From a virus: DNA of 64,000 nucleotides. The stretch is from the IMG/VR virus record IMGVR_UViG_3300042516_005475, positions 124,001 to 188,000 of that record; one strand, 5' to 3'. The translations under genes and the position numbers were made by a program. Of the stretch, positions 18,816 to 55,886 are shown piece after piece. The notes under the pieces were generated by a model. It did no database searches. It worked only from the letters and a program-made list of their open reading frames with translations, and had not been told where the DNA came from. Every line of letters begins with the position of its first letter. The stretch's first letter is position 1.

Positions 18816-18818
18816 TAT
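18791..18818 (+). promoter_or_regulatory. promoter of the tmRNA/tRNA unit
   Basis: TTGCAT at 18791-18796, 16-nt spacer, TAATAT at 18813-18818. The same TTGC-T-N16-TATWWT form precedes two tRNA groups in the 30.9-31.1 kb array. Confidence 0.65.
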
Positions 18819-18830
18819 AAATAATAGTAA

Positions 18831-18839
18831 GTTCTTTGA
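18831..18839 (+). promoter_or_regulatory. boxA-like antitermination element
   Basis: GTTCTTTGA just upstream of the tmRNA resembles bacterial rRNA boxA (GCTCTTTAA). Near-identical copies occur at 30888, 31118 and 31216 before tRNA genes. Confidence 0.5.
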
Positions 18840-18842
18840 TAT

Positions 18843-19222
18843 GGGCCTGTACTGGTTTCGATTTAACAAACTAATATAGTGTTGCACGTAGATGTTGATC
18901 GGTTGGCATCTTAAAAAGCTGATCAAAAGTTAAACGCTGAATATAGCTATGACTACGAGGCTAAGGCTGACTCTTTTGAGTACGACTTCGCTTCTGAATC
19001 CGCTGTAGCCTAAGGGCTGCACCAGACCTACTCTAAACTTGTAAGGTAGAGTCTGCTATACAAGTATCTAGTTACTATGGTAGTAAGTAGCTGGATTATT
19101 GCTACCGAAAATCTGAGTTAGGTTGTTGCTTAGTAACCTCAGATTATACAAAGCAAATAAGCGTGTAGAAGCATTATAGTATTGGGTTAAAGACGCAGGT
19201 TCAACTCCTGCCAGGTCCACCA
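18843..19222 (+). ncRNA. ssrA: transfer-messenger RNA (tmRNA)
   Basis: The 5' end GGGCCTG pairs with CAGGTCC just before the encoded ACCA, forming the tRNA-like acceptor stem; GGTTTCGA near the 5' end and GGTTCAACTCCTGCC near the 3' end are the conserved tmRNA termini. A tag frame follows TTAAAC: resume codon GCT at 18936, stop TAA at 19011-19013, 25 residues reading AEYSYDYEAK then ADSFEYDFASESAVA. It would rescue stalled ribosomes using host SmpB. The tag is long and ends in AVA instead of the usual (L)AA. Confidence 0.9.
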
Positions 19223-19227
19223 ATTTC

Positions 19228-19315
19228 GGAAGGGTGGCAGAGTGGTTTAATGCAGCGGTCTTGAAAACCGCAGTGGGTAAAACCACCGGGGGTTCGAATC
19301 CCTCTCCTTCCTCCA
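19228..19315 (+). tRNA. tRNA-Ser(UGA)
   Basis: Acceptor GGAAGGG/TCCTTCC with encoded CCA. Anticodon loop CTTGAAA gives UGA. Long class II variable arm and T-loop TTCGAAT are present. Confidence 0.95.
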
Positions 19316-19316
19316 T

Positions 19317-19408
19317 GGAAAAGACGTGAATGTCGGTTTTTCACAGCAGTTTGCTAAACTGCCGAGGTGTAACAGCCTCCGTGAGTTCAACTCTCACCTT
19401 TTCCGCCA
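19317..19408 (+). tRNA. tRNA-Ser(GCU)
   Basis: Acceptor GGAAAAG/CTTTTCC, encoded CCA, anticodon loop TTGCTAA (GCU), long variable arm. It starts 1 nt after the preceding tRNA. Confidence 0.95.
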
Positions 19409-19415
19409 TTTCAAT

Positions 19416-19489
19416 TGGGGTATTGCATAATGGTAGTGCAGAGGTCTTTGAAGCCTCTTGCGGGAGTTCGATTCTCTCTACCCCAACCA
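19416..19489 (+). tRNA. tRNA-Gln(UUG)
   Basis: Acceptor TGGGGTA/TACCCCA as in bacterial tRNA-Gln, anticodon loop CTTTGAA (UUG), CCA encoded. Confidence 0.95.
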
Positions 19490-19495
19490 ATTTAT

Positions 19496-19573
19496 GGGCT
19501 GTTAGTGATAGTGGTAGCACGGGAGCTTTGCAAGCTTTAGGGAAGAGTTCGATTCTCTTACGGTCCACCATAA
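19496..19573 (+). tRNA. tRNA-Ala(UGC)
   Basis: Acceptor GGGCTGT/ACGGTCC containing G3-U70, the alanine identity pair; anticodon loop TTTGCAA (UGC). The last three bases listed lie at the ACCA end, which is encoded. Confidence 0.9.
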
Positions 19574-19583
19574 ATATTGTGAT

Positions 19584-19657
19584 GCGGGTATAGCTTAATG
19601 GTAAAGTGCCAGTCTTCCAAACTGGCTATGCGGGTTCGATTCCCGCTACCCGCTCCA
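19584..19657 (+). tRNA. tRNA-Gly(UCC)
   Basis: Acceptor GCGGGTA/TACCCGC, anticodon loop CTTCCAA (UCC), CCA encoded. Confidence 0.95.
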
Positions 19658-46601: not shown

Positions 46602-46920
46602 GCGATCGTAGCTCAACGGTAGAGCATCGGCCTTTAATAGGAGCGCTTATAGAGTGATCTATAAGATGAACCGAGCCATATGCGGGGACCTCCTTAGAGC
46701 CTTGAGTACCGTAAGGTAAAAATCTCAAGGATTGGACAATCCGCAGGAAACCAGTAGATTAGTACGCTGTTGGTCATAAATTGGGATCCTCAGAGACTTT
46801 ACGCTTGGCATCTCTAAAAGAGATGATGATAAAGTCCAGACTACAACGGAAACGGCTAGTGAAAACTAGAGTAGTAAGTTAAGCCGGGTGTTGTGGATTC
46901 GAATTCCACCGGTCGCACCA
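46602..46920 (+). tRNA. tRNA-Lys(UUU) with group I intron
   Basis: Exons 46602-46634 and 46879-46920. Acceptor GCGATCG/CGGTCGC, D-arm GCTC/GAGC, anticodon stem TCGGC/GCCGG, joined loop CTTTTAA (UUU), T-loop TTCGAAT, CCA encoded. The intron splits the loop between positions 34 and 35, the same place as in cyanobacterial tRNA-Leu. Confidence 0.85.
46635..46878 (+). ncRNA. group I intron (IC3-like, no ORF)
   Basis: 244 nt. The 5' exon ends in U and the intron ends in G. GGAGCG near the 5' end can act as guide, giving a U-G pair at the splice site. Core elements in order: GGACAATCCGCAGG (P/Q), CTCAGAGACTTTACG (R), ATAAAGTCCAGACTA (S), and a CTAGT-GAAA-ACTAG P9 hairpin. This follows the small bacterial tRNA introns. 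Self-splicing is predicted. Confidence 0.85.
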
Positions 46921-47216: not shown

Positions 47217-47357
47217 TTATCTGTAGCTCAGCGGTAAGAGCAGAGTTCCTAACTATGGGTAAAGCCCTTAAAAATCTTATGTTAGGTCGTAAAATTGCCT
47301 TGTACTGATATTTTACAAGTTGTAAAAGTAGCCGTTGGTTCGATTCCAACCAGATGA
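47217..47357 (+). ncRNA. tRNA-like RNA with ~75-nt insertion (Arg-CCU?)
   Basis: 141 nt: acceptor TTATCTG/CAGATGA, D-arm GCTC/GAGC, possible loop TTCCTAA (CCU) and a normal T-arm GTTGG-TTCGATT-CCAAC. Between the anticodon and T arms is an extra ~75 nt holding CCTAAC/GTTAGG and CTTGTA/TACAAG stems. Too short for a group I intron. Confidence 0.5.
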
Positions 47358-47358
47358 A

Positions 47359-55454: not shown

Positions 55455-55886
55455 ATGTTCAAAAATAAAGGGTTTACAATATTAGAGATACTCTTAACAG
55501 TAGCCCTTTTAGCAACATTAATTGGTGTAGTGTCCTTTAACTTCAATAGTTTATCAGATTCTGCTCAATACAAAGAAGCCAAAGAGAATCTAAAGACTCA
55601 CTTAATAAGTCAGAAGTATAAGGCTGCTTATGAGCAGAAGGAGATTGAAGTTGATCTGAGTGTGGCAACAAATGATCTTAACATAGTAGATGCCACTAAG
55701 ATAGTATTCTTCTCTGATGGTTCAGTTGAAGAGAGCTATATAATAGTAAGCTCTTTAGATGGTAAATATACTAACAAGATAGTAATTAATGTTATAGGTT
55801 ATGTATCAGAGCAAGATACTTTCGATATTCTACCTATTGAGTCTAAAGACAGGTTACCGATAGAAAATTATGAAGAGTCTTTTTAA
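55455..55886 (+). CDS. type II/IV pseudopilin-like protein
   Basis: 143 aa. KNKGFTILEILLTVALLATL is a class III signal peptide: short basic leader, G-F cleavage site, Glu at +5 and a ~20-residue hydrophobic helix. The rest is a small globular alpha/beta domain, as in minor pseudopilins. Host prepilin peptidase could process it and host machinery could assemble it. No pilin gene is expected in phages. Starts directly after a terminator, so its own transcript must start close to the ATG. Confidence 0.75.
   Translation: MFKNKGFTILEILLTVALLATLIGVVSFNFNSLSDSAQYKEAKENLKTHLISQKYKAAYEQKEIEVDLSVATNDLNIVDATKIVFFSDGSVEESYIIVSSLDGKYTNKIVINVIGYVSEQDTFDILPIESKDRLPIENYEESF

What the first reader, a model, noticed from the sequence alone, without database searches (positions are those of the whole stretch)
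18843..19222. Phage-encoded tmRNA with a 25-residue tag ending ESAVA
A full tmRNA heads a tRNA operon. The tag (AEYSYDYEAK...FASESAVA) is long and acidic/aromatic, and ends AVA rather than (L)AA. Host proteases may recognise it differently, so the phage could redirect rescued proteins or protect itself from tagging.
Basis: partly seen in the sequence, partly recalled or inferred. Interest (0 to 1): 0.65.

Follow-up and report, generated by a model that had tools for sequence, protein, structure and literature searches.

The report
Late-expressed phage tmRNA, long private tag
A large T4-like virus of bacteria carries its own working-looking copy of the RNA (tmRNA) that frees stuck ribosomes, apparently switched on late in infection and tagging rescued proteins with a 25-residue label found in no sampled bacterium; viral tmRNAs are already known, so this is a good new example rather than a new kind of system.

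Summary
Window 18843-19222 is a complete one-piece tmRNA (Rfam RF00023, 113 bits, E 2e-43) heading a five-tRNA operon in a 230-kb, T4-like, partial phage record. Two-sided base changes keep its acceptor stem and first pseudoknot paired against bacterial tmRNAs; the G3·U70 alanine identity pair and the CCA end are present. Its 25-residue tag is also encoded, with substitutions (…SEAAVA), in a 91-92% related phage. No exact match to the tag's N-terminal pattern exists in about 85,000 bacterial species; the most likely hosts (Verrucomicrobiota, moderate confidence) use 10-residue tags such as ADSNELALAA. A T4-type late promoter (TATAAATA) sits 27 nt upstream and is conserved in the relative, and the phage encodes a gp55-like late sigma factor. 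No SmpB or ClpP was found, so host SmpB, AlaRS and proteases probably serve; a ClpA/ClpC-like unfoldase with a ClpP-loop-like motif is encoded 35 kb away. Best reading: late replacement of ribosome rescue, with the tag still a degradation signal. The 'redirect or protect' reading is untested: VA endings recur in other phage tags, and ssrA variants with LVA/AAV ends still serve as degradation tags. New member of a known kind (phage tmRNA).

The parts
18843..19222 (+). one-piece tmRNA (ssrA) gene, CCA end encoded
   Evidence: ARAGORN; Rfam RF00023 113.1 bits, model 1-374 of 374; fold z -4.25
18936..19013 (+). tag reading frame with stop: AEYSYDYEAKADSFEYDFASESAVA*, resume codon GCT
   Evidence: same frame conserved in phage relative L023 with 14 base changes, 8 at third positions
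18845..18845 (+). G3 of the acceptor stem, pairs with T19216 as G3-U70 (alanyl-tRNA synthetase identity element)
   Evidence: GT in all 9 aligned tmRNAs, while three neighbouring pairs are swapped on both sides
18891..18924 (+). pseudoknot PK1 (GATG/CATC and GATCGG/CTGATC)
   Evidence: U-A in phage against G-C in bacterial relatives; 88-91% identity to closest Verrucomicrobiota tmRNAs
19004..19021 (+). helix 5 with the tag stop codon TAA in its loop (TGTAGCC-TAAG-GGCTGCA)
18816..18825 (+). T4-type late promoter TATAAATAAT, predicted
   Evidence: core TATAAATA conserved in relative L023 while flanks differ; TATAAATA is enriched 11-30 nt before gene starts in this genome (10 of 26; 5% for permuted 8-mers)
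18831..18839 (+). GTTCTTTGA, boxA-like leader element (tentative), 12 nt before the tmRNA
   Evidence: the same or GTTCTTTAA also lies before the tRNA-Ile (30902) and tRNA-Arg (31134) genes
19228..19657 (+). tRNA array Ser(tga), Ser(gct), Gln(ttg), Ala(tgc), Gly(tcc) downstream of the tmRNA
   Evidence: same order in L023, L166, L167
18471..18815 (+). small T5orf172 (GIY-YIG-like) domain protein just upstream of the operon
   Evidence: Pfam PF10544 E 1.1e-14

Best explanation
This is a functional phage-encoded tmRNA, made as part of a stable-RNA operon from a T4-type late promoter. Late in infection it supplies or replaces the host's trans-translation RNA. It would be charged with alanine by host AlaRS, bound by host SmpB and EF-Tu, enter stalled ribosomes, and add a 25-residue phage-specific tag. 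The tag ends in small non-polar residues (...AVA) and most likely still acts as a degradation signal for host proteases. The benefit is the same as for the phage's roughly 25 tRNAs: it keeps ribosomes productive during virion assembly, when host transcripts and RNAs are being lost. Shown: gene, structure, frame conservation, operon, promoter motif, late sigma gene, no detectable SmpB or ClpP. Inferred: late timing, host partners, fate of tagged proteins, host group.
For: Full-length Rfam match. Acceptor stem and PK1 keep pairing through changes on both sides, with an invariant G3-U70. CCA end encoded. Conserved tag frame and operon in a relative. TATAAATA 27 nt upstream, conserved in the relative, in a genome where that motif marks gene starts and which encodes a late sigma factor and a sliding clamp. 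24 other tRNA genes found without introns, plus one intron-bearing tRNA-Lys. No SmpB in the record, and in 30 other viral records, mostly large and tmRNA-bearing, only one has SmpB, so relying on host SmpB is usual. Phage tmRNAs are known and thought to support translation (PMC9004378, PMC7162821, PMC12656738).
Against: No expression data. Promoter and timing are inferred from a short motif. The record is a linear fragment, so an SmpB gene could be missing. The tag's fate in the host is unknown. The tag region differs about four times more densely than the rest of the RNA (Fisher p 0.0004), so it may be under different selection. Third-position excess in the tag is weak alone (8 of 14, p 0.06).
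Confidence: 0.62

Rival explanations
1. Private degron with its own unfoldase: the phage ClpA/ClpC-like ATPase (genome 105008-107437) recognises the phage tag and feeds tagged proteins into host ClpP, so that degradation of rescued proteins is under phage control.
For: The ATPase has Clp_N, both AAA domains and D2-small, matches ClpC structures best, and carries MGF where ClpA/ClpC have the ClpP-binding IGL/IGF-type loop; MGF is kept in the relative. tmRNA and ATPase are in the same record in three phage records. Tag-protease pairing has precedent in Mesoplasma florum, with its long NYAFA-ending tag and Lon (PMC9382460).
Against: ClpA/B/C-type ATPases occur in many jumbo phages, at least one of which (Atu_ph07) is listed without tmRNA (PMC11242549, PMC7824862). 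Among 30 viral records, mostly large and tmRNA-bearing, only 4 have one, and their tags end in AA (LAA, FAA); the SVA-tag records searched have none. The tag and ATPase genes are 35 kb apart.
Confidence: 0.11
2. Evasion tag: the altered ending slows degradation by host ClpXP or ClpAP, so that truncated phage proteins are released from ribosomes without being destroyed.
For: The tag lacks LAA; likely host relatives use LAA/MAA endings; in E. coli the ssrA variant AAV is degraded more slowly than LAA (PMC9382460); ClpX contacts the terminal alanine and its carboxylate (PMC7652416).
Against: The terminal alanine is kept, and an LVA-type ending still works as a degradation tag. The phage would gain little from keeping truncated proteins (inference).
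Confidence: 0.12
3. Relic or passenger: a host tmRNA captured through integration at the ssrA 3' end, retained without function.
For: tmRNA 3' ends are common phage attachment sites; in the phages collection only the last 31 nt of this tmRNA match, many in phages named as prophages or with repeat features there. A T5orf172 gene lies just upstream.
Against: Full length, two-sided pair changes, conserved frame and promoter in a relative. The operon order is kept.
Confidence: 0.05

Closest known systems
Phage-encoded tmRNAs (mycobacteriophage Bxz1/Cali/Catera group, Bacillus phage G; PMC4131195; 402 phages with 133 distinct tmRNAs counted in PMC9004378)
   Same: Complete tmRNA in a large phage, often with a tRNA array and, in most records searched here, without SmpB.
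   Different: Different sequence and tag; likely a T4-type late promoter here. Bxz1's tag is, from memory only and not verified, also about 25 residues and does not end in AA.
OM43 phage Melnitz ssrA (PMC9004378)
   Same: T4-like marine phage with its own tmRNA; a role in host takeover was proposed.
   Different: Melnitz: two-piece tmRNA with a glutamine riboswitch and an early promoter. Here: one-piece, no riboswitch reported by the Rfam scan, predicted late promoter.
Huge phages with tmRNA and SmpB (PMC7162821)
   Same: Genome over 200 kb, many tRNAs, tmRNA.
   Different: No SmpB detected here.
Sinorhizobium jumbo phage AP-J-162 (PMC11242549)
   Same: tmRNA, many tRNAs and several Clp proteins in one phage.
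   Different: 471 kb, another host; its tag was not compared.
Verrucomicrobiota tmRNAs (tags ADSNELALAA, ANSNELALAA)
   Same: PK1 is 88-91% identical in the closest ones.
   Different: 10-residue LAA tags; other regions diverged; shorter.
Viral contigs with AKTAKYKGHISARVSLVEMTASVA tags (L052, L127 and others)
   Same: Viral tmRNA, 24-residue tag ending VA; in several, the last codons and stop GTAGCCTAA are shared.
   Different: Basic instead of acidic tag; no terminase relation found.

Membership tests
tmRNA (RF00023) | match to the covariance model above the gathering score over the whole length | tested here: met
   113.1 bits against 47, positions 1-374
tmRNA (RF00023) | tRNA-like domain with G3-U70 and CCA for alanine charging | tested here: met
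tmRNA (RF00023) | short frame from a resume codon to a stop inside helix 5 | tested here: met
tmRNA (RF00023) | PK1 upstream of the resume codon, supported by paired changes | tested here: met
tmRNA (RF00023) | alanine charging, SmpB binding, tagging in vivo | not testable with these tools
   needs bench work
phage-encoded tmRNA | full-length tmRNA inside a phage genome, not a host flank or attachment-site fragment | tested here: met
   interior of a 230-kb virus record with T4-like genes; same operon in two other viral contigs. An integrase was not looked for specifically
ClpA/ClpC-type unfoldase (partner in the rival reading) | Clp_N, two AAA modules, D2-small | tested here: met
ClpA equivalog (TIGR02639) | score above the curated cut-off | tested here: not met
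   627 bits against 993; so ClpA/ClpC-like, not filed as a ClpA orthologue
ClpA/ClpC-type unfoldase (partner in the rival reading) | ClpP-binding loop | tested here: inconclusive
   MGF aligned to the ClpC GF loop region; binding not shown

The most novel reading that the evidence does not exclude
The phage carries a self-contained late protein-disposal route: a tmRNA adds a private tag that its own ClpA/ClpC-like unfoldase reads and delivers to host ClpP, separating phage quality control from host ClpXP.
Probability: 0.1. Interest if true: 0.78.

Novelty: new member of a known kind. Interest (0 to 1): 0.36.

Why it matters
Why phages carry tmRNA is open. Published ideas range from keeping translation going to tagging host proteins early for recycling. 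A T4-type late promoter before this tmRNA argues against an early role in this lineage and makes the question testable by timing. A private tag in the same genome as a phage unfoldase with a ClpP-loop-like motif also gives a concrete tag-protease pair to test. If the simple reading is right, it is one more translation part carried by a jumbo phage.

Tried and rejected
Chance or pseudogene: rejected by the full-length model match, paired changes and a conserved relative. Attachment-site fragment: rejected, since it is full length; the phages collection shares only the last 31 nt. Host with the same tag: 0 exact pattern matches in genome contigs. General pairing of odd tags with Clp ATPases: not supported in 30 viral records; a random control draw for this gave too few large contigs to be useful, so enrichment was not tested. 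SVA-tag phages as relatives: no terminase match. Host proof by PK1 similarity alone: weakened, because one viral tmRNA with unknown host (L042) is equally similar. Looking up the Bxz1 tag in the phages collection failed. Short-peptide tblastn of the tag finds nothing, which is uninformative. TATAAATA is not over-represented in total (26 sites against about 34 expected); the signal is its position only.

Full report
Observation. ARAGORN reports 18843-19222 with the stated tag, and Rfam RF00023 matches the whole model at 113.1 bits. The sequence shows a 7-bp acceptor stem with G3·U70, an encoded CCA, a T arm, PK1 before the resume codon and the tag stop in the loop of helix 5. The RNA folds better than all 100 shuffles. 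Five tRNA genes follow at once.

Context. The window is bases 124001-188000 of a 230,047-bp virus record. Terminase, tail sheath and a weak baseplate gp6-like match mark it as T4-like, as do a UvsY-like mediator, a gp55-like late sigma factor, a sliding clamp and a head protease. ARAGORN finds 24 tRNA genes and the tmRNA in the record, plus one intron-bearing tRNA-Lys. The best isolated phage by terminase is Synechococcus phage B23 at 35% identity, so the lineage is not close to any cultured phage in that collection. The record holds no detectable SmpB or ClpP. It is linear, so this is not proof of absence.

Conservation. One other viral contig carries the same region, apparently identical. 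Another, 91% identical in the Clp protein, has a 92%-identical tmRNA with tag AEYSYDYEASSNSFEYDYASEAAVA. In the tag, 14 of 75 bases differ, 8 of them at third codon positions; the odds of a difference are about four times those outside the tag (Fisher p 0.0004). The frame, the length and the AVA end are kept. Against Verrucomicrobiota tmRNAs, three acceptor pairs and one PK1 pair are changed on both sides while G3·U70 is constant. This is good evidence of a working RNA.

Expression. TATAAATA, the T4 late promoter core, lies at 18816-18823 and is kept in the relative although the flanks differ. In this genome 10 of 26 TATAAATA sites lie 11-30 nt before a gene start, against 5% for permuted 8-mers (binomial p 4e-7). 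The overlapping variants TAAATAAT (25 of 66) and ATAAATAT (13 of 40) behave the same way. tRNA-Val, tRNA-Gly and tRNA-Thr also have TAAATAA-type motifs before them. A late promoter is therefore likely, though timing was not measured. GTTCTTTGA just before the tmRNA recurs before the tRNA-Ile cluster, and GTTCTTTAA before tRNA-Arg; it resembles a boxA antitermination element, a comparison made from general knowledge.

Host and tag. An EF-hand protein encoded by the phage has only three relatives among the pattern hits in genome contigs: two labelled as Verrucomicrobia (one of them Akkermansia) and one Planctomycetales. The tmRNA's PK1 region is 88-91% identical over 46-49 nt to the three closest Verrucomicrobiota tmRNAs, against a best of 87% over 38 nt in 294 Planctomycetota genomes. 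One viral tmRNA of unknown host is equally close, so the host group is probable, not shown. The closest bacterial tmRNAs carry ADSNELALAA. Of 52 tags read, almost all from Verrucomicrobiota, 43 end LAA and none ends AVA. The N-terminal tag pattern has no exact match in genome contigs.

Meaning of AVA. In a survey of tmRNAs in viral contigs, 44 of 66 distinct tags end AA and 15 end VA, mostly one family ending SVA. Some of these contigs may carry host DNA. Literature shows that E. coli ssrA variants ending LVA, AAV or SVA are used as degradation tags and that AAV is slower than LAA (PMC9382460), and that ClpX reads the terminal alanine and its carboxylate (PMC7652416). So AVA alone does not argue for escape. 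Mollicutes show that long tags with other endings can belong to another protease (PMC9382460).

Clp partner. Genome 105008-107437 encodes an 809-residue ClpA/ClpC-like ATPase. MGF stands where ClpC has its GF loop and is kept in the relative. This makes a paired tag-unfoldase reading possible. Against it, such ATPases are common in jumbo phages (PMC7824862). In 30 viral records, mostly large and tmRNA-bearing, they occur in only 4, whose tags end in AA.

Verdict. This is a real, probably functional, probably late-expressed phage tmRNA with a private tag. Phage tmRNAs are known (PMC4131195, PMC9004378, PMC7162821), including one in a jumbo phage with several Clp proteins (PMC11242549). It is a new member of a known kind. 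The late promoter, the conserved private tag and the Clp ATPase are the points worth following.

Noticed in passing
window 46602-46920 (+): tRNA-Lys(ttt) interrupted in its anticodon loop by a 244-nt group I intron (RF00028, 70.9 bits); the only Lys tRNA found. A viral contig without known relation (L042) has a tRNA-Asn with a 199-nt insert overlapping a group I intron match.
   Followed up: partly
window 47217-47358 (+): A further tRNA-like gene (36 bits) whose anticodon arm is disrupted by extra sequence; ARAGORN with introns reads anticodon CTA, which is uncertain.
   Followed up: partly
genome 105008-107437 (L014:5008-7437): ClpA/ClpC-like Hsp100 ATPase with an MGF ClpP-loop-like motif; no ClpP or SmpB found in the record.
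   Followed up: yes
genome 52979-55741 (L011:12979-15741): Large terminase with a LAGLIDADG endonuclease-like insert, so a possible intein or homing element.
   Followed up: no
genome 28581-29162 and TATAAATA/TAAATAAT sites: gp55-like late sigma factor and a position-specific late promoter motif; one site lies before tRNA-Thr at window 37486.
   Followed up: partly
window 55455-55886 and genome 200303-200704: Two phage proteins with prepilin N-methylation motifs, and an EF-hand secreted-like protein at genome 211439-211744 with PVC relatives.
   Followed up: partly
genome 196516-197130, 197376-197753, 207617-208307: Family of small repeat proteins of the form '(W/V)PE(A/V)E..I......A..YA'; function unknown.
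   Followed up: no
L052, L127, L043, L028, L105 and others: A viral tmRNA family with a 24-residue basic tag ending SVA (AKTAKYKGHISARVSLVEMTASVA); the one member searched has no DNA match in the cultured phage collection.
   Followed up: partly
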